NCBI GenBank assembly: GCA_030849065.1
Contig: JASAON010001645.1
Coordinates: 91,923-155,922 of the forward strand
Direction: 5' to 3'
DNA length: 64,000 nt
Origin: Jaenimonas drosophilae
Lineage: Eukaryota > Euglenozoa > Kinetoplastea > Trypanosomatida > Trypanosomatidae
Position numbers and translations under genes: made by a program. This document shows, one piece after another, positions 1,427 through 34,072 of this stretch. Position 1 is the stretch's first letter. The number at the start of each line of letters is the position of its first letter. Under the pieces are notes generated by a model. It was not told where the DNA came from and made no database searches. It saw nothing but the letters and a program-made list of their open reading frames with translations.

Positions 1427-1427
1427 T

Positions 1428-1499
1428 CATCCGTGACAGGATTCGAACCTGCAACCCTCTGATCCGTAGTCAGATGCTCTTCCATTGAGCCACACGGAC
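1428..1499 (-). tRNA. tRNA-Arg (ACG)
   Basis: The - strand folds as a complete 72-base cloverleaf. The acceptor stem is GTCCGTG with CACGGAT (one terminal G-U) and discriminator G. The D arm is GCTC/GAGC, and the anticodon stem TCTGA/TCAGA closes the loop CTACGGA. The T arm carries TTCGAAT. Anticodon ACG reads CGN arginine codons, with A34 probably edited to inosine. There is no intron, and a T-run follows. Confidence 0.95.
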
Positions 1500-1557
1500 A
1501 CATTAACAAACAAAAGATGAAAATTGCAAATATTATTGATTTCTGGATGAAAAGGAA

Positions 1558-1641
1558 TCCTTCCGGCCGGAATCGAACCAGCGACCCTGTGATACCTGCT
1601 ATCTCTACAGTCACATGCTCTACCAATTGAGCTACAGAAGG
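1558..1641 (-). tRNA. tRNA-Tyr (GUA) with 11-nt intron
   Basis: The 84-base - strand gene has an acceptor stem CCTTCTG/CGGAAGG, discriminator A, D arm GCTC/GAGC and T loop TTCGATT. Anticodon stem TGTGA/TCACA encloses CTGTAG, then 11 extra bases, then A. Removing the bases at 1594-1604 gives a normal 7-base loop with anticodon GUA (1606-1608) and a 73-base tRNA. An 11-nt intron just 3' of the anticodon in tRNA-Tyr is the arrangement known from trypanosomes, which supports a kinetoplastid source. A short T4 run lies 4 bases past the 3' end. Confidence 0.95.
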
Positions 1642-1714
1642 TTCTGAAAAACCTGTTTTTTGGAATTATTTAAACAGAACTTCTTGTGATTATTCAGCAA
1701 ACTGTGCTTATGTG

Positions 1715-1786
1715 TTCTCGGTAGTATAGTGGTTAGTATACCCGCCTGTCACGCGGGTGACCCGGGTTCAATTCCCGGCCGGGAAG
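1715..1786 (+). tRNA. tRNA-Asp (GUC)
   Basis: This 72-base cloverleaf on the + strand has acceptor stem TTCTCGG/CCGGGAA with discriminator G. The D arm contains AGTGGTTAGT, the anticodon stem is CCCGC/GCGGG with loop CTGTCAC (anticodon GTC), and the T arm CCGGG/CCCGG closes TTCAATT. It is the only + strand member of the cluster and is transcribed away from the Arg and Tyr genes. Confidence 0.95.
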
Positions 1787-1793
1787 CTTTTTT
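1787..1793 (+). terminator. Pol III T-run after tRNA-Asp
   Basis: CTTTTTT begins directly after the discriminator base of tRNA-Asp. Confidence 0.8.
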
Positions 1794-1799
1794 AACTAC

Positions 1800-3120
1800 T
1801 CCGAATTTCTGCCCCTCCCACCGCGTCTAAATTAAGAGGTGTGCCGCGGAACGGTCCCGGGCGTAACCCCCACCCGTTCGTGTTTCACCCCCTCGGGAAA
1901 ACAAGACGCGAATTCCATACATTGCAACGGTGGGTTTGTTAATGGCCTTGGATTTCCACCAAGAAGTTGGTGGCCAGCAATTGGCCTTTCGCCACCCGCG
2001 AAGCCGCAAGGAACAACCATTCGAAACAATACGCAGCTGGAATGATATGCGTCGCGAATTTAAGAAGAACTACAACTCTTCCGCGGAGTTGTTTTGGTAA
2101 TGCTTTTCGTGGTGAGACCCAATTCCTCCCAAACAATCCCGGGAATCCGGGCCACCCCCCCCCAAGGCAGCCATCAGAAGCCGAACCCCGCCAGGGGAAT
2201 TGAAGACCGCCAGCGCAAGCGCAGAAGCATTCCCCGACAAGCCCGCCGGCTGTTAAACAAACGAACGGCCTTTGCAAATCACATAGCAGCGTAACTTTCC
2301 TCGATGCCCCTGGATCCCGCAACCGAGAATGCTTTCCAGCCGCGCGGGGCGGGTTTTCTATGTTCTACAGAATCCGCGCCAGGTCCGCTTTGGGGTGGTG
2401 GGGTTTTCGATTTCCGCGTTGCGGAACGTTCGCGCCGCCCCATGCTTGGGCACCAACAAATCCCGCATAGTTGGCGTTGGCGGTGTGGTTGCAATGCGGC
2501 GCGCTTTGGGGGTTTGGCGGCCCCCCCAATCCCCCATTTCAGATTTGCGTTGGGAAGGCGCGTCGGCCGTTTAATTTCGAGGTTTCGTGCGCGCGCGCGG
2601 GGGGGGGGGTTGATTCCGGCGGAAAAGCTTTTTTCACCGGGCCCGTTCCGCGTTTGGAGGATGGATTGCCCCCGATCCTCTTCGGCAAAATCGTGCGCAA
2701 ACTGGGCGGGTCCTTGGTTTGGCGCGGGGGTATGCGGCCCCCCCCCTGTTCAATGTTTTTGTGGGTGTGTATATTGGGGGGGGGGGGGTTATCCATGGTG
2801 TGCGATTCCCGTTTCTTGGCGTTTCGTGGCTGCGAACCCCCCTCGGGGGGGGGGGGGGGGGTTGTGCTTCTCTTTTTGCGGGCGGCGGGTTGTGTTTTTT
2901 CGACGATTTGGATTTCCACTTCTTCCCGGTTCCAGAATAGGGCAACCCCCGCAAACAAGACGAGGAGCCCATGCAACCCCGAAGCAATATCCCACGCACG
3001 CTTGGTTCGCCGGGCGAATTTGTGATGTCTGTTTGGTGCTTCGCTGGCGGTGCTTGCCATTGGTGGTGAGCTCCGTAGGCATTGGGTGGTGATATTGATG
3101 CCGCGGAGCATTCTCTGTGT
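1800..3120. other. Gene-free segment with long G and C runs
   Basis: No frame in this 1.3 kb reads like a protein; the longest ones exist only because stops are rare in GC-rich sequence. Bases occur in doublets and triplets almost throughout. There are long homopolymers: C9 at 2155-2163, G11 at 2599-2609, C9 at 2738-2746, G13 at 2776-2788 and G17 at 2845-2861. The texture differs from both flanks. It may be a genuine G-tract region at a transcription start, or consensus sequence inflated in homopolymers. Nothing else is recognised. Confidence 0.6.
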
Positions 3121-5263
3121 CCTGAATTGTGTTTTGCGTCAGGTGATAATGCTGATGGCTATTTGCGTGAGGGTTCCCGTATTGTAACTGATGCAGTAGA
3201 ATCGCCTGCTAAGTGAATTCCGATCGCTCTTGGTAGATTTGAGGGTAGGGCATTTCTGTTCTTTTTTTTTTCTGACTGTCAGCAGTGGCTCTTGTGAGCT
3301 TTGTTGTTTATTCTCATGGAGCACGCAGAGATTGGAATGGGATTGATACAGTGTGATGAAGGCCCGTTCTCTCTGCCTTGGGGATTCTGCAGTTTGCTTG
3401 ACCATCAGCTGCTTTCTTCGTCTGTTTTCTTGTGGGGGATATGCTGCGCTGATCCTTTCTCAAGGATTGCCTTCCTCCCTGCGCAAGCTGTTGGGATCCA
3501 TTGAGAAAAGTTGTCATTGTTCCCCGACAGCAGTGAACTTAGCTACGCACATCTCCCTAATCCACTCTCTCTGAGTCAAGCCGACTAGTGGTTACTTTGA
3601 GGGGAGCTCCCACGTGACATCTGTGGAGTACCCAAAGGAAATGCAGCGAAGTTACTCTTGGTTTCAATCATCTTGCACACACTAACAACCTTCCCAGTTA
3701 GTGAACGATTGCTTCAGGGTCCATGCACGCCAAAACATTTTAAAATAAGCCAAATGAAATTATGGAAGGCTTAGCGTTTCCAAAATCATGTACCGGATAG
3801 CTCTCGGTTCCAACACATTGTCAAGTCAATGATCGCACATCCAGCATTTGGATGTCATGGATCATGACTGGGATGCTGGAGATGTGCAGAGTGACCCTGG
3901 TCTGGAATTCTTGTAACTTTTTCGGTGACCTCTGCAGCGGTCGTCTGAGAGACTGATGATCAATGTGGTTCGAGTTGTAAATCGCAACATGGTTTCTGTT
4001 GCTGTTCTCTTACCCGTTCCACTCTGAGCGCTTACTGTTCTTATTCAGAGGCTCACAATCTGAGCGATGATATTTTTGCGGAATGGCAAGTGTGTTCGGG
4101 CAAACTTGAACCCTACAGGGTGGCTTGCTTCACTCGAGAGTCGTTTCTTTGGTTATCGTCGATCGATTTTGCAGTTGATAAGCAGAGGGAAAAAAACTCG
4201 TTACGCAAGGCAGTTTTGATTGGGTCTATTTCTTATGCGGGATTGGAAGTTTCTCACTTGGAGAAATTGTCAACCCGCTCGATTGCTCACTAAGCATACT
4301 CAGCTCAGCTGTCACAAGCTCAAATACGTTTATCCTTCTCTGAGAAGTTCCCTCTACGCTCAGGGTGTTATAACTGACCGCGGCGCCAAACCGCCGAAGT
4401 GGTGATATCGTGAGCGAGAGACGAAAAAGACTGGCGGCCAGACAGAGAGAGAGAGAGAGAGAGAGTGAACGAAAAGAGCTAAACGAGCAAAATTGTTTTC
4501 CTCGCGCTTGGATTCTGCAGCAATACCACATTCTTCATCTCTACCCGCCACCGATAGCAAAAAGCAACTTTGAATCTCGGTGATTTACCGACCTGTATAT
4601 CGATTGCAGGCGCTGGTTAATATTATCTCCACTGTGCCTTTGCGCGTTTGCGGTGGACGTTTGAACCATATGGAGGCTCCTCAAAGCTATCGATGCGTCT
4701 GACAGAGCAGTTCTAATCTTTGGCTCGATCCTCTTTCTAACTGGCTACACTGGTACACTAAGCGTTATTTATTTCATACTTAAATGGTGGATTATGCGAG
4801 ACCACAGAATTGAGCTTCTGTTTGCGCTAGTGCGTCATGTTGGGAACAGAAGCCGTACGCTAATTTTTGTTCAGGTTGTACGAAGACTGTGGCGTTTCCT
4901 CGTTGTTGATCCAACATGCTGTGTGCTTGTATCTCCATCTCAATCGTCCCTCCTGCCGTCTCACCTCTTTGACTCAGTCCATCAAATAGTTACTTTTCCA
5001 GATACATTGGAGCACTCTATTCAGCCACCAGGGGTAACGATTCGTTTCAAGCTGAAGACTACGACACTTGAATGTTTATACGCTGAGACGACTACTGACT
5101 GCGATTTCACGTGCTTTAATCCTCCCATCCCAAAATTTTGGAACAAGGTGGAGATTTTTTTTCGTTGTGAATTCTCCTTTTGTCATACCACCATTGATCT
5201 TTGTTGATCCACATATAGTTCTTGTTTTGTCTGCTCTCTGCGTGAATTTTGCGCGTTCACGAT
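3121..5263. other. Gene-free stretch upstream of the giant gene
   Basis: About 2.1 kb of more AT-rich sequence with frequent stops in all frames. It contains an (AG)11 repeat and scattered T runs but no recognisable gene or RNA. It lies between the tRNA cluster and the first gene of the next same-direction array, where a kinetoplastid transcription-start region could lie. Confidence 0.55.
4444..4465. repeat. (AG)11 microsatellite
   Basis: Eleven uninterrupted AG units inside the gene-free stretch; no other function is visible. Confidence 0.95.
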
Positions 5264-5318: not shown

Positions 5319-8300
5319 ATGCGGATTCACATCAAGTTTGGTGACACGAACCATGTGGTAGAGATCTCAACAGATGCAACCCTCGGAGATTTGAGAGAGA
5401 AAGTTCGAGATGCTACCAGGGTACTTCCGCCGATGCAGAAACTGCTGGGAAAGCCAAACCTTCAAACAAAACCGGAAGATTCTCTATTATCAGAGTTGGG
5501 AATTCGTGATGGGACAAAACTTATGCTAATCGGAAACCAAGTTGCGGATGTGGTGGAGGCAAATCGTGCATCGGCAGTTGAGCAGCAGCATGAATCCAAA
5601 CAAGTTCAGCTTCGGCTTCGCCTTCCTCATCACGTATGGATGCTTTCTCCGTACGCTTCTGCTCTTGCGGATGCGTATGTTGATGGCCGTGGCGCCCCTT
5701 TGGAAGGAGGTGGTCATCTCCTCTCCCTCCTTGCCCTCGACCTTATTTTGACGCGCATCAATCGACTGGGGGTTGCTTCGACAGCGGGCTCCGCCCAGCT
5801 CCTTGCTGCTATGGGGAATGAGGGGGCAGCACAGATTCGTCATCCATTTCTGGCTTCTTTTTCCGATCAGCACAGCGTTGCCCTCCAGTACGTACACCGT
5901 ATTGTTCGACGGTGCTATGAATTTACCGCCGCTGCTACCGGTGCTCAGGAGCCTGGGGCCATTCGAGAGGTGGTGGATCGTTGCATCCGTGATATTGATA
6001 GTCTCTCGGTGGGAGAGTGGCTGTTGCTTCCTGCGGGATGGGTTGGTCAAACGTCGTCCAACTACTGTTTTTTGTTATTGCATCGCGTGACATCCGAAAA
6101 ATACACAGTTGTCGTGATGAATCGTGGACGTGATGGACAAGAGTACCATCCGCGGTGGGCAACCGCTGAGAAGATCCGAGTATCCCCAATTCTTCACGTT
6201 GATGGGGTGCACCGGGAACGTGTTGTTGATCACGGATTCTGGCTTACACTCCTATCTCTCTGGATGCGTGGCAACGATCCACAGGATCAATCCGAGTTTA
6301 TTCGTGCTGAAGTGTTTTACGATGTTTTGCTCCCCTGGCTTGTTGAGCATGGAGCTCATCAGGAAAATTTTGAAACGAGAGGAGCTTCCGAGGCGCTCTT
6401 TCCATGGGCAGCGGATGCAACCGCCACTGCAGCTCCCTATCCGAAATCAGTTACCCAGCAGGGATGTAGCACCATTTGCAGTGCGTCTAGCGCAATGAAA
6501 GGAGCAATGACAGCAGCTTGCTTTCTCGCAGGCCGGCTAGGAGAGATGACTCCTGCAGAAGTGAAGCAGCTGAAGTTTGCTCTCAAGTACGAGCTGTTCG
6601 TCCGTGCAGCGGAGGATGTGCACAACTACGCCAAGCGATTTGTGGTCAATGAGTCGCTCTCTTTCCCCAGCCGCGTGAAGTCCGTCCCAGGGTCGTTGAC
6701 TCAGGATGGTGCATCCAACGTGGTGGACCAGCAGCGATTATGTCGAGCGATGTCATCATTAGTGGCTGCAGGGGTAAAAGATACCGCCTCTGGTATAAAC
6801 CTACGAGATGTCTTATCAGCTGCTGGCGAACAAGGCGTCGTTCTCACGCAAGCTAATCATGTACTGCTCTCCACTGATTCCTTGATGAACAAAATGGTGT
6901 TCGTCTATATCGGTTCTCTCTCTGTGCCTGAATGTGCTACCTTCACTGCGCTGGTAGCTGATGTGGTACCCTGTTTGGCCCGTGCTGTGCTGCGTGGAGC
7001 CCCACCCGTGGAGATTCTATTTGTGAGCGCCGACCAAACTCGGGAACTCTATGACCAGCATGCGGCGATGCTTCCGTGCTCACGGGCGGGCTTTTCTCCA
7101 GTTGCTCTCATTCAATCTCTGGATTGCTCCAAGGTACCTGAAATGATTGCCTTTGGCCCAGATGGGGCATTACTGCACCGAGATGGGGTTCAGGCTCTAC
7201 GAGCTGACCCAGAGGCACTTCTTTTCCCTCATGGACCGTGGAGGGCAGCCAACCCCCTCTCCGCCACAGACGTGCGCATGTTAGAGGTAAGTTCAGCACA
7301 GCTAGCCCATCACACCAACCGCCGCCTATCAAACGGCGCGATCACTGAGGATGTTGGCCAGCAGATACTACGCCTCGTTGAGGCGGTGAAAGACGTGGTG
7401 GACGCGTTGCCTCAAGATGACATCCGCGACTGGACATCAACCTCAGCAACAGGTCGACCCAACGACGCCCACAAATCTCACGGGAGCAGCGACTGCATCG
7501 AATCTCAAGATCCAACTTCGCTCGACACTTTGCTCACTTCCACTGTGCTTAACAGTAGGGACAATGGGTACCCTGAATGCAGTCTACTCCCAACTGTGTC
7601 TACAGCACGTTACTGTGGGAACCTATTTCACACAACTCCAGGCACTGCTGATGACCTAACTGAGCTTACAATTCCTCAGAGTTTGCGCGACCTGCATAGA
7701 GTGCTGGTGCATTGCAAAATGATTGTTTCACGTCTGTGGGCTCGTGCCGGAGATAGCGGCACCTCCTCGCGCGTAGCAGTTGAGATGCAGCTAATCGAGT
7801 TCATTTCGTGGGCCTTTATGGAACTTATACCCGTTCCCGGGGTGGGCACGGGGGCAACTGTAGGAGCCGACCCCCTTGGCTCGGCTACCAGGTCCGTTAG
7901 CGCCGACTTCTATGAAACCGATAGCTTCGAGTGGGCTCAGCTAAGTGCGGAAGAAGACCCGCAATTGGAGACACTCGCTGCGATACACTACTTACTGCTC
8001 TCTTTCGGGAATGCCTGGCAGGCAGTGGAGACCCCATCCCGCAGTGCCGATGCCGAGCGATGCTTGGTTTCCATGGAGATGCTCCTCGTCTTTGACGCCG
8101 TTGTTCGTCAGGTGAATGGCAGTCGTGGGGGTCAGCAGCTGGCGCTGCTGCTAGCCAGTGACGGGGGCTACTATCTGTCCACCACATTAGGAAAACGCAA
8201 TCTACCCTTCGCGACGGTAGCAGCCTCACTGGAGCTGACCCGCCCACGCTTGCTTCTGGTGCGGGCCTGTATGCTGCGCTATATTAACCACCAACATGCT

Positions 8301-11300
8301 TGCTTTCAGCACGAGCTCTACGATCTCCGAATGCCTGACAAACTTGAAATTCGTCGAGGCAGTCGAACCATTACTTTTCTTCGAACATTCATGGATAATC
8401 TTGGATATTCTATTGATGATGCCGGTGGCCAGCGCGGGGCTCAGGGCTCAGAAATGGAGAAGTTGATGGAATGGCTGTGCTCTGATCGGACGCCCCTTGC
8501 CTCAAAGAATCCTGAGTTTCTTCTCGTTCGAGATGTCGTGCTTTTGGCTAAGTTTTTGGGGACGATGGAGCGGCGCGAGGCGCAGCTTCTAAACAGGCGG
8601 AAGGAACTTGATCACTTTGCGAGCTGGCGCATCTGCTTTGAGGAAGACACACCCGGTCGTCAAATGAGTGCGGGATGGCGCACTAGTCCCACTTCGTTAC
8701 AATGGGAGTGTTTGATGGTGCGAGGTCGGGATTTGGATGTGGCAGATATTACGGTGCATGGCTTCGGGAGACGTGAGCTTCTCTATGGAGAGGGTCTGGT
8801 TCTGTGCTCCCCGATTGATGTTGGTCGTCTACTGGGGATTGACCGGCCCACAGAGGATGATGTGCTACACGCTCGTCAGCTCCCCAACTTGGGAGGTGGT
8901 ACGATGAATATAGAGGAGGTGGAGGTGGTGTTAAGCTGCTTGACTACCCCCTATCTCCGTATACCACTTCTGCTCGACTTCTTCAGCACGCAGGACCGTC
9001 ACACCTACTTGTTTCTCCCTCCAGTTCAGGCTCTCTTGCGGGCGGTGCTCTTTGAGCCCGCTGACTTTGTGCTCCCCGAACGCTTGCTGCAGGCTGACCC
9101 GAGAGAGGTTCCAATGCGCCTTAGCGCTGCGCAGCGAGAGGAGATAGAGCGACAGCACCTCCACGGGGACTTCCATCGCCATATTGATGAGGATTGCCTG
9201 GGCACTACCTATGGCTTGCTCCTGAACGAACTGGCCAATGCTCCTTCAACGGTACTACAGCCTGTGTCACGATTAGTGGATTCAGTGAAGGAGCTAGGCC
9301 CAAGCTCTGTTTACAGCGCCAATGCTAGCTACGTTCTCTTTGTGGTGGAACTGGTGACGGGGGTACTGAACTTCGTTCGATTTTCTGTAGAGCACCGCAC
9401 CTCGTCCGAAGTGAGTACAATGCATCACTTCCATACGGAGCTGCTTCAGTCCCTAGAATCCGTTGTGCTGCCTCTACTGACCGCATGGCTGGAGGAGAGT
9501 GTGGGAAATCTTGATACCCCATCGCAGTGCGTGGTCTATGCCTACCAGAGTATGGTAGTGCGAGCGCTGTGGAAGGGAGCCGTGCTGAACCTGGGTGGGA
9601 CCTCTTCTTGGGGAGACGCCTCCAACCTTCCCACTGTTGCTCGTCACATAACGCGCTTGCTTCGGTGCAGCGCCTTTGTTCGTGCACGCCACGGCTTTGG
9701 CATGGGCATGCAGCGAACTCAGTTGGCGGCGCAGGAGGGTGACAACGAGCTGAGCGCGGAGGACAAGCTGCTTCGATTTCTCCAAGCGCATGGACTCAAT
9801 ACTTCACGTGCCACACCTCAGCTCTTGGAACAAGGCAAGCAGCTCATGATGAGCGGCGGCCGTCGCCGCGCGGTTTTCTTACAAATTATAGGCCAGCATA
9901 CACGTGATACGGTTCGCTTGCCCAATCTCTTCCGAAGTGATCCCAGCAGCACGACGGAGTCCAAGCGCCTCAAGCTTCCTCCAGCTGACCTCCCCGAGCT
10001 TGAGCTTTTCCAGGTGTTACACGAGGATCACAGAGATATCATGTCGTGGATGGAGGGCCTATCATCCGAGGACTTGTCGACTTTGCTCAGCAGTGTGGTA
10101 CAGACTGTTCTCTGTGATGTGGACGGTTCCAGCCCCACCAGTTCAGGGCACCTCACCAGTCACGGCAGCTCCTCTGGTTTTGCACATTTTGACGCCACTG
10201 CAGAGGAACTATGGACGCGTGAGCAACCTGGCTGCTACGCGAGCAGCTCTAGAAGCGGCCTTGCATTCCATCTTCAGAGTTGCGAGCTGTTTTGGCATCA
10301 TGATGAATTGCGACCTGTGCCTGATAGCATGTCTCACTTCACGGATTTTGAGAATATTTTGGGCAAAGACCTTCTCCAGTGTGGCCTAGTTAGCCGTCAC
10401 GAGCACCGCCATTGGGTCCATATTGTTGGAACACCATATGACGTTGTGGAGTGGACCTCTCCACCAGAAGCAACCGACCAGGGCGTCCATCATCCCATCA
10501 TTCTAAGCGGGGACTGGCCGGGAGAGATGGCTCGTAGTGCGGCCTTCGAGGGCGACATTTTTGACCGACCGGTGGAAGTTATGAGCCCCGATCCATGGCC
10601 GGTGAGGGCGGAGCGGTGGGCGGTCGAGCTGGTGAAGTGTGTATATGCGGCATCCTACCCACATGGTGTTCAATTCGCTCCACTTGCGATGGCCCTCCCC
10701 GAGGATACGACAGGGGCAACGGAGACTGAATGCGATGAGATGCATTTTCTGTACAACGATGCACCGCAGTACCCCAGGAATCCAGAGAATGCCACGTGGA
10801 AGGAGATCGTCGCTTATCGGCGCCCACAACCACACTTTCATGTTTTCAACCTGGTTCCACATGCCCGAAAGATGTATCGCTCTTTGGTCTACAGCACCAA
10901 TCAGCGATTGTGCTTGCACAGCCTGGCTTTGATGGGACGGGAGCGGCGGCGCGATGCACTTCAATCGACCGCCTTCGTTGCGGGTGAACTGAAGCGTCGC
11001 ATTAGCGTTGATACCACTCTTGAAATCCACAGGCATAATGCAACTCTCGGTGGCCGGGAGACGTACGTACCTGCAGCTCTGTTGCAAGGGTTGGTGCCAA
11101 GTGCGCTTCTCGAGGCTTTTTATATTTGGCAGGGCGACGACGATCTCTTGCGTGGATATCATATGCCGCAACAGCGCAACGCCTTGTCCGACGCCGCGCT
11201 TAGTGCACCTGAGAGTGAGGAGCACGATCACTGGTTCAATTACAGCGTTGAAATCCACTTGCGGGGAACGGGTGAAGCACAGAGCCTTTCGCATTGTACT

Positions 11301-14300
11301 GTGGTTCGCCGCAACGATCGCAGTTATACCCCAATTTCTCAGCTCGGAAATAGCACAGAAGGGGTTGTTGGCGCAACTTCGTCCATGAGTGAAGAGGCCG
11401 CTGACCCAGCTCTCATTGCACTGTTACACCGTGCCATGCCGCACATTCCGCAGGCTGTCTGCGCGGCCATTCTTGAGCGCAGTAAGGCGATGGACATCGC
11501 CGGGGCCATCGCTTGGGCGCGAAGCTCCGATCACCAGGCGGAGGTGGAGGCCTTAGTTAGTGATCATCGTCTTCCCGAAGGTGCCAATCACGTGGCGGCA
11601 GCACCAGGAACCAGGGCTGATGACCTCATCTTGGTTAATCTCCTCCAGTGGCCGCACCTCGCCCCCTTGTTGGCAATCCTCACTCAACTCGAAGACTGCT
11701 CGCATGTGTTAGTGTGGGCACGACGATGTGCGTCCCTCTCTCTGGGCGATCAATTGTCAAAGACAGTGGTGACGTCGGATGAATCCGGTGGGGAGGGAAA
11801 TCTATACATTGACCACATTGATCTCCCCCGTCTTCGTGCACGCTTTGAAGTGCGTCGAGATGGTGCAAATTCTCGGCTTCGGATGTTCCTTGCTGACCAG
11901 CCAGGCTGGCGGTTGGCAGAGGCCGATGATGCTGGTGCGTGGTCAGCACCTCGTCTCAATGTACTTCGAGCACCCTTTCAACAGTGTGTGGTTCTGGTGA
12001 ACAGCACGCATGAGACGACGCTGCTCGTTCCCAACCACGACTTCTCGCCTGTGGAAGTGCGAGAGGACCCGTTCTGCCCATTGCTGCTATTCGACCGGTC
12101 GTCCTTCACCTGGCGCGAGGCAGTGCCATCTCCCTTTTACCTCTACCCCGTACATCCCAGCCACGGCTTCCTTCAGCCGCCAACTCTGGCTGCGTCGCTG
12201 TACTACGCTGTCATGCAGTGTGCAACGCAGCACTACGTGGGCGCCATTCGTACATTGGAGGCGTGCTACACCGACTGCCCATTTTCTGCAGAAGAAGCCT
12301 TTATGGCTGCACTCTTCGAGCGGACGATGACGGACCGATTTCCCGATGCCCATGCTGTGCGCCTCAAGCTTGCCCATGCTGTCCAGTACAGCACCAACAC
12401 ATATGAATGGCCTCTTGTGGCTGAGCTTCACGGATACCTCGAAAAGAAGCGCCACGTTCGGGCGGATTGCCGACTATCGCGAAGTGAGCTGGTGGAGGTG
12501 CTCAAGCGCTGCGATAAGTCATCACCGCTCCCTAAAGCACAGTTGGAGCTATTGGCGGCTTTGATCCGGGCAGAGAGCGCGGCGCGGCGAGTGGATGGAG
12601 ATATTCCAACCTCCTGCACAGCCATCATTGGTACCCCATCGCTGCAGCGCTGCGGTCATCCATGGGAGCAACTGCTGGTCACCCGCTGGGAACATATATC
12701 GCCGCAGAAATTGAAGCGGCTGACGTTTCGGTTTGATCCCAGCCAGTTGGAGGATGACGCGTTGGTGAGCTTTATTTGGGGAGACAAGCTTTTGTCGGAT
12801 GAGGAGAACGGCGGCAACCGCAAGCTCGGCTTCTACTTCTTGTATGCTCTGCACAAGCAGCACGTTTCCCTCCGTCTCGGTGAGGCTGACGTCACCTCCA
12901 CATTGTCGCAGTTGTGGAGTCGTTGGTTCCATCTTCGGCACGCACGATGGGGTCGAGAGGCCGCAGCGGGCAATGGAAGCAGCTCCGAAGACTCGACGGT
13001 ACCACCGTCATGGAGTGCAACTGTGCTTCAGTTGATGGAGCTCTTCCCCACTGCAGCATGGCCCGCCATGGCCCCACCACAGGAGCAGTTTGTATTGGCG
13101 AACGGTATCAATCTTCAAGCCTCTGCAATGGATCGCGATGGCCATCCGATTCAGAATTTGCAATTTGCCCAGGCCCGCCGAAGCACGTTCCCTGACCTTT
13201 TCGAGGCGATCCATCATGTGGCACGAGAGCTTCATACAATTAGCTCATTCACTGAGATGCGCCGGGTACAGATACAGGCAAGCTGGAGGCGTATCCCAAC
13301 AGAACGCGATATGGCGGTGCACATGTATGATCATGTACGAGGCCGAGTGCTACCCCAAAACTCCGCGCTGACCTCCGTGAGCTTGGGGGAAGCCTCGCTG
13401 GGCCACTCCTCTCTGGGCCAGCTTCTGGGGCAGCGACCAGGCGGACTGGGCCAAACCCTGATTGCGCTGTGCGAGGAGCCCATGGGGGAGCTTCAGCTCC
13501 TTGGGCCTGTTATTCATGTTAGCATGCCGGAAGCCGTGAATGAGGAGGAGAGCGGGCAAGACGGTAGCGAGCCCTTGCCATTTGATTTGCGGCGGCACCA
13601 CCTTGCTCGACCTCCCCTCGCCCAGGGCATGCTTGACCGTCTCTCAGAGGATGCTGCTCGGTACCAACACGAGCAGCGTCACACGGTACGCTATACCCTT
13701 TGCTGCCTCTCTGAGAAGGCTGTTGAGTCTCTCCTTACGAGCCCACAGGACAGTGAGGTGCAGGATGCCCTAGCGGAGGCGTGGACCGCTGTCCAGGAGA
13801 TCGTTGATCGCTGCACACAATTGGGCAAGATGGATTCTGAGGCCGTCGAGGTCGCCACGCGCTCTGTCTTGTCAATGGCCAACCGTCCTGCTTCCACGGA
13901 GGAAGCTGACGCTTTGAGTGTGCTGCGCCATCGTCTGCAAGTGGTTTCCAAGGACTGCACTAACGTCACACTGGAGTGGCTGTGTGGGGCAGCGCTGAGC
14001 ACCGAGCTCGGCTCTGATCTCAATGCCATTAATCCCCACCACGGGCCGGTGGAGGCTCTTCGAATGGAGTTAGTCATGCTGATGTTGCTCAGCAACCGCG
14101 TCTACTTCTGTGAGCAGAGTGTGGCCGCGGCTCAGAGCCTCCTCCTGTTTTTGGAGCTCTGCGGACTTCTCCGTGGCCACAGAATCCCTTCCGAGGCATC
14201 ACGTGATGAAGAGTCGGAAGCTGGATTCCGTGTGGGGCTCCGCCAACGTGTTCACGAGCTCGTCCAGCATTTCTCGCTGGAACTAGCACCAGATGACCTC

Positions 14301-17300
14301 CTGCAAGCGGATGGGAGCATCCTCTCTCTCCCGCAGAAAGTGGTGGAACTGCTGACGAGTAGATTGCATCAGCTGCAGCAGGTATTGATGGATGTGCTCA
14401 CAGCTAGGCGTCACTATAGCGCGAAGGAGGCAGAACATGTTGTGGCAACCACGACACCGGCAGGAGTGGTGGAAGCTGTTTCCCGCACTGTGGACCCCAG
14501 ATTTGTGCTTTTCGAGTTCGTCTTCAACATCATGCTACGTGCCAGACAAGTGGAAATGGTACGCTGGTTTGTTGCTAACCTACAACAGGGCCAGTCACGG
14601 GTGCAGCAGATGATCATGGGACAAGGAAAGACCACTGTGGTGGGACCGTTGCTGGCCCTCATTTTGGCAGATGGAAAGCAGCTCGTGACGCAGGTCATGC
14701 CAACTGCTCTTCTGGAGCAAACCCGCGGCATCTTACGCCGGTGCTTTAGTGCGGTCCTCGTCAAACACATCTACACGCTCCAGTTTGATCGGAGTATGAC
14801 CGATGGTGGCGCTGCGGGAGGCGGAGAGGATGGAATTCATCTTCTCTTTCACAAGCTGAAGTCAGCGGAAGAGGATGGCTCCGTCGTGATCGCTGCTCCT
14901 GAGTGCATCAAGGCAGTCTTCTTGAAGTGCATGGAGCAGCTTCACCTCCTTGAGTCTGTTTCCACTTCCGATCTCGAGGCTACCTTCGCCGTGGATGAAC
15001 GTGATTCCTCGCACCGCGTCGCCCTGCGGGAGACAACAGTGGAACGAGGGCGGGTTGCCGACGCCATCTTCCCCATCCTGGATCTGTGGCGCCGCGGTGT
15101 CTTGATGATGGATGAAGTGGATGTTCTCTTGCATCCTCTGCGGTCCGAGCTCAATTTCCCCATTGGCATGCGCCATCCCATGGACATGAGCGGGCCGCGA
15201 TGGCGTCTCCCCATGCATCTGCTAGATGCGATGTTTTTCTCAAAGCGCGGACGTGCTTGCGAAGATCCTCAGCGGCACCTCACAGGAAGTCCGGGTGGAG
15301 ATTGGGAGATGGGCAGCTCAGAGGACCCTCAGCGGCAAGAACTCCGGACTGCCACTCTCCGTCGCATATCAGAGGTGATTGACGAGGGCTTTGCGTGTCG
15401 AGCACTTCAGCGAGAGCCACACTTGGTATTGCTCGACCCTCAGTTCTACCATGATCGTTTGCTCCCCGCGCTGTTGCCGTGGGTGCAGCTGTGGCTATAC
15501 GAGTACTATGATTCGGAACTACCTAAGCAGGTGGCTGCTCGCTCGGGGATCTGCACGTGGGAGGTGTTTCGCAGCCACACGGACGAGTTCCTCACACAGC
15601 CTCGCATTTGTGGAGGTACTCCAGTTGCAACGTACTTGAACCTTCACCTCCCCGCTGATGTCCTGAAGTTACTCGTGCTTGCCCATGACTGGCTGCACCG
15701 ACTTCTTCCTCACGTGATCGCCAAAATTGACCGCGTCAGCTTTGGTGTGCTGCAGCCCACAGACCTCGCCATGACGGAGTCGGCCACTGATGGATCTATG
15801 CCCTATAGCCGTCGCATGATGGCAGTCCCCTTCGTTGCCAAGGATGTGCCCAGTCGTTCATCCGAGTTTGCTCATCCCGATGTTGTTCTCGGTCTCACTA
15901 TCCTCGCATTTCGTTATGAGGGCCTCAGGAAGTTGGATGTGCATGCGCTGTTGGTGCAGCTCAAGCAAGACTTTTCCCGTCAGTCAGGCCCCAAGGCTCA
16001 TCGACCAGCTGCCAAGTTGTATCAGCACTGGCTGCGGCTGAGCTCATTGGAAGCTCTGCCCGTTGATGAGCACGGAGCTTCGCATCGACTAGAGCAAGCT
16101 GGAGTTCCACTCTCTCAGCTTCAGTTGTCAGATCACGAACAGATGGATTCCTTGTGGCACTTGCTGCGCCGGGTGCCAGAAGTTGTACATTACTATCTCT
16201 GCTCCTGTGTCTTCCCACGAACCATGAACTTTCAGCATCTCAAGGTGAGTGCCTGTGGGCATGAACTTGGCAGCTCGTTGTTGTTTACGAGGAGACTGGG
16301 CTTCAGTGGTACACCAAGTAGCTTGCTGCCCATCGACTTGGGTGAATGCCTGTACGAACCTGGGAGTGATGGCCGCGTTCTCTCCGTTCTCACGAACCCA
16401 CACGTGGTGCAGGTGCAGGACCTCCCTGAGCAGTGGACGCCGCTCCACCTCCTGGACCGCATCGCTGCCGCCCAACCGTCCTTCTCTGCCCTCATTGACG
16501 CTGGTGCCCTCATCACGAACATGCGCAATGATGAAGTTGCCCGATACCTCTTGGCACGCCTCCCGAGCGCCTCCTTTGATGGCGTGACGTACCTGGATAA
16601 CCAAGATCGCCAAATGATTGTGCTGCGTGCACATGGTCTCGTGGTACCTGTGGCACAGTGCGGAGTGCCACTATCACGACGATTTACCTTTTTTGATCAA
16701 GTACATACGACAGGCACGGACGTGAAGCAGTGCGCGACAGCAACGGCGGTTCTGACCCTCGGAAAGGATCTTGTGTTCCGAGACTACGCTCAGGCAGCCT
16801 ACCGCATGCGCGGTATTGGCCGCGGCCAGAAGCTCTGCCTATACCTGATACCTGAAGTCCGAACTCGAGTGGAGCAAGTCCTTGGTGAGGGCTTCCGAAG
16901 TGGGGACCTTCTGAGGGATGTTCCAGCCTGGTTGCTCCTCAATTCGATGCGTGTGGAAGGCATGCAGTTCCACAAGCTTTCCCTTCAGGAGGTGGCCAAC
17001 GTGTGGCGAAAGAAGGCTCTCCGCAATTTGGTTGCGGATGCTACCTACGCTGCGTCCCACGCTGACCTCTTCAATGGATTCCTTCGCAGTAGACGTTTTC
17101 AGCTTCCACGTCCCGCTTCTGCGGTGGTGAAGGAGGACTTTTCTTCGCTGCCTTCTGTTGCCGTACTGCAGCGCTCGATTCAGGAGTTCCGAGAGAGCAT
17201 TGACTTCCCACTGCCTTCCACGATCGCCACCCCTCCAACGCTGGCCGATCAGCTTCATCAGGGAATGGCAGAGCGACCGGCGGAGCTTCTGGAGGGCGAT

Positions 17301-19106
17301 GACGCAGCCCATTCTCTGGTGCAGCGGCTGTTGGACCGCATGCTGGCGGCCGTTCACCTTTCCAGCACCACTGATGGAGAGGCTCGCCACGAGCTTGACA
17401 CCATGGATCTCAACGCGGAGGTGGTTCACGAGCAAGAGGCCGAGCAGGAGCAGGAACAAGAGGCCGAGCAGGAGGAGCAGAAGGTGATGGACTTTTGCCG
17501 CGATGATGAGACCCAGATACCGTGGTCCATCAACACCTTACGCAGCTGTGGGGCTGACGCGGAAAAGACACGCCAGCCCAGCGGTGGCTCCTGCTTCTAC
17601 CAACTACGCTCTATGCAAATACGCCCCACTCAACCTCAGCTTGCTGTGGATGAGCACTACCTACTCAGTGACAACTACTTCCGCAGTCAGTGGCATGGAG
17701 TGGGCGAGAGACGCCTGAAGAATGCCTTCATCTTTGTGGAGTGGGTCCCTGTGGATGCCCTCGTTCCTCCAACTGGCGAGGCAGACGTGGCCTTGACATC
17801 CACCACAACTGGACATGTTGTGAATCGGGCTGACAACCTTCTTGCTGGTTTGGTGACGTTGGCAGAGGGAGAGACTTTGCGCTGGATGCTCCATCACAGT
17901 GCCTACGTCCGAGGAAGCCAGGGGCTCGCGCTGCGATTTGTCAGCTCCGGCAGGTATCTGGACCGCACCGCTCTTTTTGCCACCATGATTCCACACCCTA
18001 GCAGTACGCCTCTTCCTGAATCAAGAGAAGTGGCTGGGAATGTACCCACACGTCGGTCATCCTCCCTTCCCCCATCCCCCGCAGCATTGCTGTTCCGATT
18101 CCTGAATAATGACATGTACTACTCGGAAGCGGAGCTGCGGACTCTTGAAGGGGCCCTTGCTGGGGTTCCTCCTTCAGACCGTTTGGAGTTCTTTGTGGAG
18201 TGTTTGCGTCTACGACGGCGACACCGCAACCACTGGGAGGATGCCCCCATCGCGGCACTCTTTGTGCTCCCCGAGGACAAGCCTTTTCTGCGTCAGATCA
18301 CGAGAGCAAAGCGCATGCAGCTGGTCCTGCGCGAGGCCGTGGAGGTGCTTGTTCGACCTGTGGAGAGTCTGTCGGCTGTGGAGAAGGAGCGTGCGACACG
18401 CATGGATGAGCGCCTCCACAACTTTGCTTTGCGGGTGAGTGAGGTGCGGATGCAGGGCGATGAGGAATCCGGCACGGAGGAAGTTGTCCTTGCTCGGGAT
18501 CTCTCCGAGCTCCTTCTTGATTGCTTTTCCGGCATTCTTGGTGGCATGAGTTCATTTGATGTGCAGCAGGCCTTGCTTGCCGTTGCCGCCGCCGACTCGG
18601 CAGGATTGGAGGCCATCTCACTACTGAAGTTTTTTGACGCATTCCCCTCCCTCGATTCGGCACATGTAGTGGAGTGGCGTGCAGCGGCCATGTCGCTAGC
18701 CGGTGGAGCTTCCAGAGGCGCCCACTCCGCTCCTCTCCCGTGGAATTGCCCCACCTGCACATACCTGAACGATCCCTCCACCTCCATGTGCGTCATGTGC
18801 ATGGTTCCACGACCAGGAGGCGCACCCAAGGAGGAAGATGGACCGTGGCAGTGCACGTCCTGCACATTTATCAATGAGAGCCGACAGATGCAACTGTGCT
18901 CTGTGTGCCTAGCCCCCAACCCAAGCCCACTTCAGCAGGAGAAGGGCACCATGGATGATTTGGGGATGGGATCGTGGACATGTCCTGAGGGCTATTGGAC
19001 CTGTGCTGTGGAACAGGGCGGCTGCAGCAAGTTCAACCTCAATTCTTTCTTTTACTGCCAGGTGTGTGAGAAGGCACGCCCAAATCTCGCGAGTATTCGT
19101 TTTTGA
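5319..19106 (+). CDS. Giant UBL - DUF3638/DUF3645 ATPase-like - RanBP2 zinc-finger protein
   Basis: This 4595-residue protein begins with a ubiquitin-like domain (about 1-72, MRIHIKFG to TKLMLIG). The middle has no domain I can name, apart from a weak UBA-like helix set near 2029-2070. Around 3040-3860 lies a DUF3638/DUF3645 region with helicase/SecA-like ATPase motifs: MGQGKTT (Walker A, K3104), DEVD (3265-3268), GFSGTP (3661-3666), HTTGTDV (3796-3802) and YRMRGIGRGQ (3828-3837). A Glu/Gln-rich segment spans 4038-4055. The C-terminus carries two RanBP2-type zinc fingers (WNCPTC at 4475, WQCTSC at 4510) and a third divergent Cys set (4555-4590). RanBP2 fingers often bind ubiquitin, so a ubiquitin-linked unfoldase or translocase is a reasonable inference. 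Substrate and location are unknown. The frame is intact over 13.8 kb. Confidence 0.9.
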   Translation: MRIHIKFGDTNHVVEISTDATLGDLREKVRDATRVLPPMQKLLGKPNLQTKPEDSLLSELGIRDGTKLMLIGNQVADVVEANRASAVEQQHESKQVQLRLRLPHHVWMLSPYASALADAYVDGRGAPLEGGGHLLSLLALDLILTRINRLGVASTAGSAQLLAAMGNEGAAQIRHPFLASFSDQHSVALQYVHRIVRRCYEFTAAATGAQEPGAIREVVDRCIRDIDSLSVGEWLLLPAGWVGQTSSNYCFLLLHRVTSEKYTVVVMNRGRDGQEYHPRWATAEKIRVSPILHVDGVHRERVVDHGFWLTLLSLWMRGNDPQDQSEFIRAEVFYDVLLPWLVEHGAHQENFETRGASEALFPWAADATATAAPYPKSVTQQGCSTICSASSAMKGAMTAACFLAGRLGEMTPAEVKQLKFALKYELFVRAAEDVHNYAKRFVVNESLSFPSRVKSVPGSLTQDGASNVVDQQRLCRAMSSLVAAGVKDTASGINLRDVLSAAGEQGVVLTQANHVLLSTDSLMNKMVFVYIGSLSVPECATFTALVADVVPCLARAVLRGAPPVEILFVSADQTRELYDQHAAMLPCSRAGFSPVALIQSLDCSKVPEMIAFGPDGALLHRDGVQALRADPEALLFPHGPWRAANPLSATDVRMLEVSSAQLAHHTNRRLSNGAITEDVGQQILRLVEAVKDVVDALPQDDIRDWTSTSATGRPNDAHKSHGSSDCIESQDPTSLDTLLTSTVLNSRDNGYPECSLLPTVSTARYCGNLFHTTPGTADDLTELTIPQSLRDLHRVLVHCKMIVSRLWARAGDSGTSSRVAVEMQLIEFISWAFMELIPVPGVGTGATVGADPLGSATRSVSADFYETDSFEWAQLSAEEDPQLETLAAIHYLLLSFGNAWQAVETPSRSADAERCLVSMEMLLVFDAVVRQVNGSRGGQQLALLLASDGGYYLSTTLGKRNLPFATVAASLELTRPRLLLVRACMLRYINHQHACFQHELYDLRMPDKLEIRRGSRTITFLRTFMDNLGYSIDDAGGQRGAQGSEMEKLMEWLCSDRTPLASKNPEFLLVRDVVLLAKFLGTMERREAQLLNRRKELDHFASWRICFEEDTPGRQMSAGWRTSPTSLQWECLMVRGRDLDVADITVHGFGRRELLYGEGLVLCSPIDVGRLLGIDRPTEDDVLHARQLPNLGGGTMNIEEVEVVLSCLTTPYLRIPLLLDFFSTQDRHTYLFLPPVQALLRAVLFEPADFVLPERLLQADPREVPMRLSAAQREEIERQHLHGDFHRHIDEDCLGTTYGLLLNELANAPSTVLQPVSRLVDSVKELGPSSVYSANASYVLFVVELVTGVLNFVRFSVEHRTSSEVSTMHHFHTELLQSLESVVLPLLTAWLEESVGNLDTPSQCVVYAYQSMVVRALWKGAVLNLGGTSSWGDASNLPTVARHITRLLRCSAFVRARHGFGMGMQRTQLAAQEGDNELSAEDKLLRFLQAHGLNTSRATPQLLEQGKQLMMSGGRRRAVFLQIIGQHTRDTVRLPNLFRSDPSSTTESKRLKLPPADLPELELFQVLHEDHRDIMSWMEGLSSEDLSTLLSSVVQTVLCDVDGSSPTSSGHLTSHGSSSGFAHFDATAEELWTREQPGCYASSSRSGLAFHLQSCELFWHHDELRPVPDSMSHFTDFENILGKDLLQCGLVSRHEHRHWVHIVGTPYDVVEWTSPPEATDQGVHHPIILSGDWPGEMARSAAFEGDIFDRPVEVMSPDPWPVRAERWAVELVKCVYAASYPHGVQFAPLAMALPEDTTGATETECDEMHFLYNDAPQYPRNPENATWKEIVAYRRPQPHFHVFNLVPHARKMYRSLVYSTNQRLCLHSLALMGRERRRDALQSTAFVAGELKRRISVDTTLEIHRHNATLGGRETYVPAALLQGLVPSALLEAFYIWQGDDDLLRGYHMPQQRNALSDAALSAPESEEHDHWFNYSVEIHLRGTGEAQSLSHCTVVRRNDRSYTPISQLGNSTEGVVGATSSMSEEAADPALIALLHRAMPHIPQAVCAAILERSKAMDIAGAIAWARSSDHQAEVEALVSDHRLPEGANHVAAAPGTRADDLILVNLLQWPHLAPLLAILTQLEDCSHVLVWARRCASLSLGDQLSKTVVTSDESGGEGNLYIDHIDLPRLRARFEVRRDGANSRLRMFLADQPGWRLAEADDAGAWSAPRLNVLRAPFQQCVVLVNSTHETTLLVPNHDFSPVEVREDPFCPLLLFDRSSFTWREAVPSPFYLYPVHPSHGFLQPPTLAASLYYAVMQCATQHYVGAIRTLEACYTDCPFSAEEAFMAALFERTMTDRFPDAHAVRLKLAHAVQYSTNTYEWPLVAELHGYLEKKRHVRADCRLSRSELVEVLKRCDKSSPLPKAQLELLAALIRAESAARRVDGDIPTSCTAIIGTPSLQRCGHPWEQLLVTRWEHISPQKLKRLTFRFDPSQLEDDALVSFIWGDKLLSDEENGGNRKLGFYFLYALHKQHVSLRLGEADVTSTLSQLWSRWFHLRHARWGREAAAGNGSSSEDSTVPPSWSATVLQLMELFPTAAWPAMAPPQEQFVLANGINLQASAMDRDGHPIQNLQFAQARRSTFPDLFEAIHHVARELHTISSFTEMRRVQIQASWRRIPTERDMAVHMYDHVRGRVLPQNSALTSVSLGEASLGHSSLGQLLGQRPGGLGQTLIALCEEPMGELQLLGPVIHVSMPEAVNEEESGQDGSEPLPFDLRRHHLARPPLAQGMLDRLSEDAARYQHEQRHTVRYTLCCLSEKAVESLLTSPQDSEVQDALAEAWTAVQEIVDRCTQLGKMDSEAVEVATRSVLSMANRPASTEEADALSVLRHRLQVVSKDCTNVTLEWLCGAALSTELGSDLNAINPHHGPVEALRMELVMLMLLSNRVYFCEQSVAAAQSLLLFLELCGLLRGHRIPSEASRDEESEAGFRVGLRQRVHELVQHFSLELAPDDLLQADGSILSLPQKVVELLTSRLHQLQQVLMDVLTARRHYSAKEAEHVVATTTPAGVVEAVSRTVDPRFVLFEFVFNIMLRARQVEMVRWFVANLQQGQSRVQQMIMGQGKTTVVGPLLALILADGKQLVTQVMPTALLEQTRGILRRCFSAVLVKHIYTLQFDRSMTDGGAAGGGEDGIHLLFHKLKSAEEDGSVVIAAPECIKAVFLKCMEQLHLLESVSTSDLEATFAVDERDSSHRVALRETTVERGRVADAIFPILDLWRRGVLMMDEVDVLLHPLRSELNFPIGMRHPMDMSGPRWRLPMHLLDAMFFSKRGRACEDPQRHLTGSPGGDWEMGSSEDPQRQELRTATLRRISEVIDEGFACRALQREPHLVLLDPQFYHDRLLPALLPWVQLWLYEYYDSELPKQVAARSGICTWEVFRSHTDEFLTQPRICGGTPVATYLNLHLPADVLKLLVLAHDWLHRLLPHVIAKIDRVSFGVLQPTDLAMTESATDGSMPYSRRMMAVPFVAKDVPSRSSEFAHPDVVLGLTILAFRYEGLRKLDVHALLVQLKQDFSRQSGPKAHRPAAKLYQHWLRLSSLEALPVDEHGASHRLEQAGVPLSQLQLSDHEQMDSLWHLLRRVPEVVHYYLCSCVFPRTMNFQHLKVSACGHELGSSLLFTRRLGFSGTPSSLLPIDLGECLYEPGSDGRVLSVLTNPHVVQVQDLPEQWTPLHLLDRIAAAQPSFSALIDAGALITNMRNDEVARYLLARLPSASFDGVTYLDNQDRQMIVLRAHGLVVPVAQCGVPLSRRFTFFDQVHTTGTDVKQCATATAVLTLGKDLVFRDYAQAAYRMRGIGRGQKLCLYLIPEVRTRVEQVLGEGFRSGDLLRDVPAWLLLNSMRVEGMQFHKLSLQEVANVWRKKALRNLVADATYAASHADLFNGFLRSRRFQLPRPASAVVKEDFSSLPSVAVLQRSIQEFRESIDFPLPSTIATPPTLADQLHQGMAERPAELLEGDDAAHSLVQRLLDRMLAAVHLSSTTDGEARHELDTMDLNAEVVHEQEAEQEQEQEAEQEEQKVMDFCRDDETQIPWSINTLRSCGADAEKTRQPSGGSCFYQLRSMQIRPTQPQLAVDEHYLLSDNYFRSQWHGVGERRLKNAFIFVEWVPVDALVPPTGEADVALTSTTTGHVVNRADNLLAGLVTLAEGETLRWMLHHSAYVRGSQGLALRFVSSGRYLDRTALFATMIPHPSSTPLPESREVAGNVPTRRSSSLPPSPAALLFRFLNNDMYYSEAELRTLEGALAGVPPSDRLEFFVECLRLRRRHRNHWEDAPIAALFVLPEDKPFLRQITRAKRMQLVLREAVEVLVRPVESLSAVEKERATRMDERLHNFALRVSEVRMQGDEESGTEEVVLARDLSELLLDCFSGILGGMSSFDVQQALLAVAAADSAGLEAISLLKFFDAFPSLDSAHVVEWRAAAMSLAGGASRGAHSAPLPWNCPTCTYLNDPSTSMCVMCMVPRPGGAPKEEDGPWQCTSCTFINESRQMQLCSVCLAPNPSPLQQEKGTMDDLGMGSWTCPEGYWTCAVEQGGCSKFNLNSFFYCQVCEKARPNLASIRF

Positions 19107-32644: not shown

Positions 32645-32980
32645 TGCCCGTGCAGTGCTACATGGTTCCTTCTCGTGAGTGTGCCAATGTGTGGGGCGGC
32701 CTAAATCCAATCGTCCCTGCTTGTACAGTCAGTCGTAGCTTAGCATGGCCACATGTATTACTGGATATACTGCTGGTGGCTGATACTATGCTGTCCTCAT
32801 CCACTCCACCCATACTCCCCAAATACATGCTGAGATACATCCCGAGACAATGATGATCAACCACATGACATGAGTTGTTTCTTTCATCCTCACACGTGTT
32901 TTGCTCCTCATTGTTTGTATTATTATTATTATTATTCAAGCTTCATCCATAGATAGGTGTGTAGGTTGTGTGGCTTGGTC
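32645..32980. other. Intergenic region with (ATT)n repeat
   Basis: 336 bases with a short ATT microsatellite at about 32917-32936 followed by a CTTCATCC stretch and TAG (AG near 32964). No gene is seen. Confidence 0.65.
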
Positions 32981-34072
32981 ATGACAGCTGCTCCAGCCTC
33001 TGCTCACTTCACAGAGGCCAAGACCTCTCTTGCACTCTTCAACGATGTATCCTGCAGAGATGCCCTTGTGAAGTGGGGCCTTCCGCCTACTCCGCGTGCG
33101 TCTGGATGGCTCGTCCAGCACTTCACTTTCTCCACGGCGGACGTGGCCCAACCATCCACTGATGCGATGGCTCTCCCTCTAACCTCCCTACGCTTCTTCC
33201 ACCACGGCTTAGCGAGACCGCTGCTTCAGGCGTTTTTCGCCTCCCCAGCGGTGCGCGCTGCTCTTCGTGCGGCCGCCCCCACCCCACGCCGGCAAGCACC
33301 AGGAGGTGAGGATGTGATGGTGGATGGCCATGACGCACCGCGTGCCTGCGCCGTCACCGCAACGCCCCTTCGTCGCACATGGACCTCCCTCGACCCCCTT
33401 GACCGTCTGGCGGAGAAAGGTGTTGTGCGGCGAGTTCCTGCAAGCACCACCCCAACGGCAGCCCCTGACTCAGCCTATGACGAGGACATCATCTTTGGTG
33501 GCGAACGTATGCCCATTGTGAAGTGCATGGAGAGGTCGCTCCCACAGGAGGTCCTCATTGCCGATGAGCTGCGGTCGCTCTTCCTCTCTGCCCACAGCCG
33601 ATCCACCTACGGAGGGGGTGCGGAAGATGATGAGGAGGACGAGGATGGTATGGGCTACTACGGCTATGGCGGAGGTCGCGGGCTCTCCTCGAAGGAGCTT
33701 CGCAGCATCTTCAGTGATGCCGAGCGCGAGGAGGTGCTCTATCACATTCTGTGGCGTCTCATCGCTGGCGGAGGTGCCATGAACCAGTTTGAGGATGACT
33801 TTTGCATCTACAAGGATGCAGCCCGCACGTGGATGAAGCAGTTGCTGACCTCTATCACCCCTACGAAGTTGGAGGAGGAGGATGCGGAGCTCATCCCCGT
33901 CATTCAATCTCACGTCTATCAGGTGCACTCCGTCGTGGATGAGGCAACGGGCCGTTGTGTGCTCTTTGGGGATGCAGCTGGGGATGATATGGCGCCATCC
34001 AATCTGAACTACTGCTACGTGATTGTGAGCCCGCAACAAGATCAGATGGTGTTGTGGTACCACTGCTCTTGA
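32981..34072 (+). CDS. CFAP300: CFAP300 (C11orf70) homologue, dynein-arm assembly factor
   Basis: The C-terminal half of this 363-residue protein aligns well with animal CFAP300. YDEDI, then IVKCM, a spaced ADELRSLFL, AEREEVLYHILWRL, GGAMNQFEDD, an isolated YVIVSP and a terminal VLWYHC all keep their order and spacing. CFAP300 is needed for assembly or transport of axonemal dynein arms, and loss of it causes immotile cilia in humans; a flagellar motility role is expected here. Two parts differ: a Pro/Ala-rich insertion near residues 95-165, and a Gly/Tyr/acidic insertion (GYYGYGGGRG) around 210-235 between conserved blocks. The frame extends upstream only to a GTG at 32957, so the start is ATG 32981. 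Confidence 0.87.
   Translation: MTAAPASAHFTEAKTSLALFNDVSCRDALVKWGLPPTPRASGWLVQHFTFSTADVAQPSTDAMALPLTSLRFFHHGLARPLLQAFFASPAVRAALRAAAPTPRRQAPGGEDVMVDGHDAPRACAVTATPLRRTWTSLDPLDRLAEKGVVRRVPASTTPTAAPDSAYDEDIIFGGERMPIVKCMERSLPQEVLIADELRSLFLSAHSRSTYGGGAEDDEEDEDGMGYYGYGGGRGLSSKELRSIFSDAEREEVLYHILWRLIAGGGAMNQFEDDFCIYKDAARTWMKQLLTSITPTKLEEEDAELIPVIQSHVYQVHSVVDEATGRCVLFGDAAGDDMAPSNLNYCYVIVSPQQDQMVLWYHCS

What the first reader, a model, noticed from the sequence alone, without database searches (positions are those of the whole stretch)
5319..19106. Giant ubiquitin-linked ATPase-like protein (UBL + DUF3638/3645 + RanBP2 fingers)
A single intact 4595-residue frame joins an N-terminal ubiquitin-like domain, a helicase/SecA-like ATPase core of a nearly unstudied family, and C-terminal fingers of a type that often binds ubiquitin. 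The combination suggests a ubiquitin-dependent unfoldase or RNP remodeller. To my knowledge no cellular role is established.
Basis: partly seen in the sequence, partly recalled or inferred. Interest (0 to 1): 0.75.

Follow-up and report, generated by a model that had tools for sequence, protein, structure and literature searches.

The report
Giant ubiquitin-linked motor with dead protease
A kinetoplastid flagellate encodes one very large, widely conserved protein that looks like an ATP-driven, SecA-like motor flanked by ubiquitin-type domains, and its front end carries an inactivated cysteine-protease-like domain whose apparently intact version survives in other protists and in Legionella-type bacteria.

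The parts
5319..19106 (+). whole coding frame, 4595 aa, single-copy giant DUF3638/DUF3645 protein
5319..5540 (+). ubiquitin-like (UBL) domain, weak by Pfam; conserved in the kinetoplastid set (QKLLGKP block)
5601..6644 (+). AnkH/AnkD-type cysteine-protease-like domain, catalytic residues lost
6060..6062 (+). Asn261 (P0001 numbering) at the position of the His of intact relatives
   Evidence: alignments
6120..6122 (+). Asn281, retained (third triad member)
   Evidence: alignments
6489..6491 (+). Ser404 at the position of the Cys of intact relatives
   Evidence: alignments
6888..7169 (+). thioredoxin-like domain (Thioredoxin_8), VPEC instead of CxxC (6924-6935)
14427..17054 (+). SF2/SecA-like ATPase core, as modelled
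   Evidence: model pLDDT 80, pTM 0.72; fold matches
14490..15230 (+). DUF3638, first RecA-like lobe with Walker A GQGKTT 14619-14636 and DEVD 15111-15122
15804..15899 (+). DUF3645, conserved stretch between the lobes (AVPFVxKDVPSRSSEFAHPD)
16302..16820 (+). motif III FSGTPS (16302-16319) and second lobe with motif V-like HTTGTD (16704-16721) and motif VI-like RMRGIG (16803-16820)
18741..18800 (+). zinc finger 1, NZF-type (CPTCTY..CVMCM)
18846..18908 (+). zinc finger 2, NZF-type (CTSCTF..CSVCL)
18996..19067 (+). zinc finger 3, variant (C..GGCSKFN..CQVC)

Best explanation
This is a giant ATP-driven remodelling machine of the DUF3638/DUF3645 family. Its C-terminal third holds an SF2, SecA-like two-lobe motor that probably pulls or reshapes a polymer, most likely polypeptide. 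The N-terminal UBL and C-terminal NZF-type fingers probably tie it to ubiquitin or the proteasome. In its ancestor the N-terminal domain was probably an active, clan CE-like cysteine hydrolase working with the motor on ubiquitin- or Ubl-marked cargo. In kinetoplastids that domain and the thioredoxin-like domain have lost their catalytic residues and probably serve as binding or scaffold modules, while the motor motifs stay fixed. Shown by sequence or model: frame, conservation, motor fold and motifs, protease-like fold, absence of catalytic residues. Inferred: ATP hydrolysis, ubiquitin binding, the nature of the substrate, the ancestral activity and the coupling.
Against: No biochemistry. Sequence profiles of the N-terminal domain did not reach AnkH/AnkD in the PDB set, so that homology rests on fold and motif order; Foldseek's best E was 1.3e-3. 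MDA5 and SRCAP rows precede SecA (rank 5) in Foldseek's list for the core, and DEAD-box proteins tie with SecA by Z, so nucleic acid as substrate is open. UBL and fingers fall below Pfam cut-offs in the window's own protein; Nup153 fingers, which are not ubiquitin receptors as far as I recall, also match finger 1 (0.014). AnkH itself showed no protease activity in vitro although its triad was needed for function (PMC6712400, passages), and LegA15/AnkD, of the same fold, has been reported as an atypical GTPase (PMC9757750, passages).
Confidence: 0.5

Rival explanations
1. It is an RNA- or DNA-dependent SF2 ATPase (RNP remodeller, nucleic-acid sensor or translocase); the ubiquitin-type domains only regulate its turnover.
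For: Foldseek's first four rows are MDA5, SRCAP, MDA5 and LGP2:MDA5, and many nucleosome remodellers follow; DEAD-box proteins tie with SecA by Z; weak Pfam ResIII/DEAD matches in relatives. RanBP-type fingers can also bind RNA (recalled).
Against: No RNA-binding family in the Pfam scan. Fingers 1 and 2 carry the T-Y/F plus hydrophobic signature of ubiquitin-binding NZFs (signature recalled; sequence). The AnkH-like protease fold and UBA/UBL partners in relatives point to ubiquitin.
Confidence: 0.25
2. It is an active deubiquitinase, as the automatic UniRef label 'ubiquitinyl hydrolase 1' on many relatives says.
For: Label on many relatives; the N-terminal fold resembles clan CE-like proteases.
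Against: The positions of His, Gln and Cys are Asn261, Ile399 and Ser404 in the window protein; no catalytic deubiquitinase family among the six Pfam families listed at E <= 10 (OTU1_UBXL is the UBL of OTU1, not its catalytic part); Cys in 0 of 21 kinetoplastid-set proteins.
Confidence: 0.04
3. It is mainly a static scaffold: the motor binds ATP as a switch and does not translocate.
For: About 2300 conserved residues between the front domains and the core match no Pfam family; two front domains have already lost their catalytic residues.
Against: Walker A, DEVD, motif III and the arginine-bearing motif VI are nearly invariant in 57 aligned proteins, which a mere scaffold would not need.
Confidence: 0.15

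Closest known systems
Pfam DUF3638 / DUF3645 giant proteins (Leishmania, Trypanosoma, Bodo, oomycetes, Monosiga, Thecamonas, Hondaea and others)
   Same: Same family, same long conserved body and motor motifs
   Different: Front domains vary among relatives (UBL, UBA, EF-hand, thioredoxin-like with or without CxxC, protease-like with or without triad); the window protein has UBL, protease-like without triad, thioredoxin-like without CxxC, and three fingers
Legionella AnkH (6mca) and AnkD/LegA15 (7ew8, 7kj6, 7xql), cysteine-protease-like domain
   Different: Those are ankyrin-repeat proteins with chains of about 430-460 residues; no sequence match found; the window protein lacks His and Cys
SecA translocase
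   Same: Two RecA-like lobes; first-ranked whole-core match
   Different: About 12% identity; tied with DEAD-box proteins; no SecA family among the Pfam hits shown
NPL4/TAB2/TAB3-type NZF fingers
   Same: C4 spacing and T-Y/F...Met/Leu positions in fingers 1 and 2
   Different: Finger 3 departs from the pattern; binding untested
Cdc48-Npl4-OTU1 (recalled, analogy only)
   Same: Motor plus ubiquitin receptors plus hydrolase
   Different: Single chain, SF2 and not AAA+ motor, hydrolase residues lost here

Membership tests
DUF3638/DUF3645 family | both Pfam domains over their cut-offs | tested here: met
   93.3 bits (cut-off 31) and 55.3 bits (cut-off 25)
SF2 helicase/translocase superfamily | Walker A, DExx, motif III, motif V and arginine motif VI in order | tested here: met
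   positions and conservation; motif names beyond Walker A/B are recalled
SF2 helicase/translocase superfamily | two RecA-like lobes | tested here: met
SecA | SecA sequence profile | tested here: not met
   no SecA family listed at E <= 10 for the protein nor among the 25 families shown (of 29) for 42 core sequences at E <= 1; HMMER's filters drop most weak matches
SecA | peptide-crosslinking domain and two-helix finger | not tested
   inserts were not folded and searched alone; features recalled
Clan CE-like / AnkH-type cysteine-protease-like domain | fold | tested here: met
Clan CE-like / AnkH-type cysteine-protease-like domain | His-Asp/Asn-Cys catalytic set | tested here: not met
   Asn261, Asn281, Ser404 in the window protein
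Ubiquitinyl hydrolase (UniRef label) | catalytic Cys in a known deubiquitinase family | tested here: not met
Ubiquitin-like domain | UBL profile over cut-off | tested here: inconclusive
   15.5 bits under the 25.4 cut-off, yet solved UBLs match at 1.7e-5; not folded
NZF/RanBP2 finger | C-x2-C...C-x2-C with T-F/Y signature | tested here: met
   fingers 1 and 2; signature recalled; Pfam score 23.6 under the 27 cut-off
NZF/RanBP2 finger | ubiquitin binding | not testable with these tools
   needs a binding assay
Thioredoxin-like redox protein | CxxC site | tested here: not met
   VPEC in the window protein; domain profile met at 29.7 bits, cut-off 27

The most novel reading that the evidence does not exclude
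A previously undescribed class of single-chain machine couples a clan CE-like ubiquitin/Ubl hydrolase to a SecA-like motor and ubiquitin receptors. Kinetoplastids keep it with a dead hydrolase as a ubiquitin/Ubl grip. Legionella-type bacteria carry whole copies of the machine as well as the small AnkH/AnkD proteins, which may be stripped-down mimics of the front domain of this host protein.
Probability: 0.2. Interest if true: 0.85.

Novelty: new variant of a known kind. Interest (0 to 1): 0.62.

Why it matters
DUF3638 proteins are very large conserved proteins of many protists, and no function was found in print here. Recognising a motor fold and a protease-like front end turns an unknown family into testable enzymology. 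The link to AnkH, an effector kept throughout Legionella whose protease substrates are unknown (PMC11475232, passage), suggests where to look for its host counterpart. If true, it would add a non-AAA+ route by which ubiquitin-marked cargo is pulled apart.

Tried and rejected
A permuted papain fold (first idea, notebook) was dropped once fold search pointed to AnkH and clan CE, where His precedes Cys natively. An OTU domain was considered because of the UniRef label: one of 15 front-domain pieces touched Peptidase_C65, at E 0.098; another single piece matched DUF7648 at 5e-4, which I did not follow. PADLOC gave nothing at E <= 0.1 and NCBIfam one match at E 0.6. The profile search of the core against the PDB gave only low-complexity-type matches, the best in overhanging tails of the alignment. 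Profile searches of the front domain gave only designed proteins. Viral contigs: 17 stretches matched one of two peptide patterns, none a relative. The same two patterns were used for genome contigs, so bacterial relatives without them would be missed. Searches by guessed Leishmania identifiers and by combined terms found no paper on the gene; the guessed identifiers may be wrong. The third protein search returned only 4 proteins, the query included. The tree is the quick version, the careful one did not finish, and long branches meet; I use it only to say that the 7 kinetoplastid-set rows group together (support 100) and that the 4 intact-triad rows group weakly (76). It used 30 of the 57 aligned proteins, P0115, P0118 and 8 bacterial rows. 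The middle of the protein (about residues 690-3050) and the UBL and fingers were not modelled. For A2 I used 41 of the 120 proteins listed, chosen by coverage and variety; for A3, 14 of the 16 homologous pieces printed. 'Kinetoplastid set' means rows that are named kinetoplastids or, for unnamed metagenome proteins, that I placed there by similarity; truncated relatives without the front domain (P0012, P0017 and others) are not in the 21. The viral fold library was not searched.

Full report
What is there. The frame from the ATG at 5319 to the stop at 19106 is intact and encodes 4595 residues. The genome is that of a kinetoplastid: the KMP11 family, which I recall as kinetoplastid-specific, has two strong matches in it. 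The DUF3638 and DUF3645 searches find this one locus only. Numbers below are those of P0001, which starts at 5280, so the ATG Met is residue 14.

Domains by sequence. Pfam gives DUF3638 (3071-3317, 1.8e-26), DUF3645 (3509-3540, 4e-15) and Thioredoxin_8 (537-630, 8.6e-7), with RanBP fingers and UBL under their cut-offs. Solved UBLs match the first 90 residues at 1.7e-5 and weaker. Finger 1 matches the solved finger of TAB3 at 5.7e-4, and 2crc, NPL4, TAB2 and Nup153 fingers more weakly; finger 2 matches RNF31 at 0.093. Three C-terminal fingers are visible at 4488-4507, 4523-4543 and 4573-4596, and all three are seen in all 12 kinetoplastid-set rows shown, window included.

Relatives. The first search listed 120 of 224 proteins at E <= 1e-3: Leptomonas, Leishmania and Trypanosoma at 50-61% identity over the searched region, Bodo, then oomycetes, Thecamonas, Pelomyxa, Monosiga, Hondaea, a dinoflagellate (Durusdinium) and others. 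Of these 120 and the query, 57 were aligned. Conserved blocks run from about residue 800 to 4370, far beyond the two Pfam domains. Identity to Leishmania infantum by 200-residue segments is 31-75%.

Is it alive here? Of 121 proteins, 103 hit the front-domain profile; His is kept in 42, Asn/Asp in 96, Gln in 58, Cys in 4, and His+Asn/Asp+Cys in 4 (P0108, P0115, P0116, P0118). P0242 and P0243, from the third search, show the same motifs. Of 22 kinetoplastid-set proteins looked up, P0002 gave no hit; of the other 21, 0 have the Cys and 1 (P0026) has the His at the aligned position; P0018 has a His one position off. The window protein has Asn261, Asn281, Ile399, Ser404. At the thioredoxin-like site, 1 of 17 kinetoplastid-set rows keeps CxxC (P0018) against 20 of 39 others; of the remaining 19, 15 have no letters there, 2 have half the site and 2 have the site without CxxC. 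So two front-end catalytic sites are gone in nearly all of the kinetoplastid set while the motor motifs are kept. Whether the triad is ancestral is inferred from its presence in bacteria and in a few eukaryotic-type relatives.

Bacteria. The genome scan, with two peptide patterns, gave 200 stretches of which 9 encode relatives. L006, labelled Anaerolineaceae, aligns at 36% over residues 1833-3928, over a far longer stretch and with a far better E-value than the others, and may be a eukaryotic contaminant. The other 8 (Legionella and related gammaproteobacterial records) carry the front domain upstream of the DUF3638 match (profile E 3.2e-15 to 5.6e-9), with open frames of about 2970-4290 residues in the 7 of 8 where both ends lie inside the locus. 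All 8 show G-H and Q-x-SGTC; 7 of 8 show the Asn (L008 has Gln). The order of front domain and motor is thus the same in bacteria and eukaryotes. The quick tree separates the bacteria from the rest on a very long branch and gives no direction of transfer.

Mechanism. I hold an ATP-driven remodeller of ubiquitin-marked protein most likely (0.5), a nucleic-acid motor next (0.25), a switch-like scaffold next (0.15) and an active deubiquitinase unlikely (0.04). A caution for the front domain: LegA15, of this fold, was reported as an atypical GTPase using Cys361 and Lys367, with not much effect of the His268 change (PMC9757750, passages). The fold therefore does not prove proteolysis.

Literature. 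DUF3638 appears in 4 papers and DUF3645 in 1 of the library. I saw the DUF3638 passages of all four. The Tetrahymena paper calls the domain widely distributed with undefined mechanism; the others mention it in a gene table, a list of expanded genes and a figure legend. I found no held paper linking DUF3638 to AnkH or clan CE; this rests on the searches and on the passages. The AnkH paper has no word starting with DUF.

Noticed in passing
L010:4400-15577, and L007-L009, L011-L014 around the match: Legionella and related gammaproteobacterial genomes encode giant ORFs with the same front domain (G-H and Cys motif present in 8 of 8) upstream of a DUF3638 motor; their role is unknown.
   Followed up: partly
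L006:42-6782: A contig binned as an Anaerolineaceae MAG encodes a fragment that matches the query far better than the other bacterial relatives do (36% over residues 1833-3928); perhaps a eukaryotic contaminant.
   Followed up: no
window 26563-31692: SNF2 helicase interrupted by a RING finger (Rad5/HLTF-like arrangement, recalled), another ubiquitin-linked ATPase on the same strand.
   Followed up: no
window 32957-34072 and 34828-36339: CFAP300 cilia/flagella protein and an arrestin-fold protein; the arrestin fold struck me as unexpected in a kinetoplastid, an impression not checked.
   Followed up: no
window 1427-2031: tRNA cluster: ARAGORN and Rfam agree on two genes, but each adds a third that the other lacks (1938-2031 - and 1558-1641 -).
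   Followed up: no
P0018: A metagenome relative inside the kinetoplastid-set clade of the quick tree still has CGPC in the thioredoxin-like domain and TPQR in the protease-like domain; it looks like an intermediate in the decay.
   Followed up: partly
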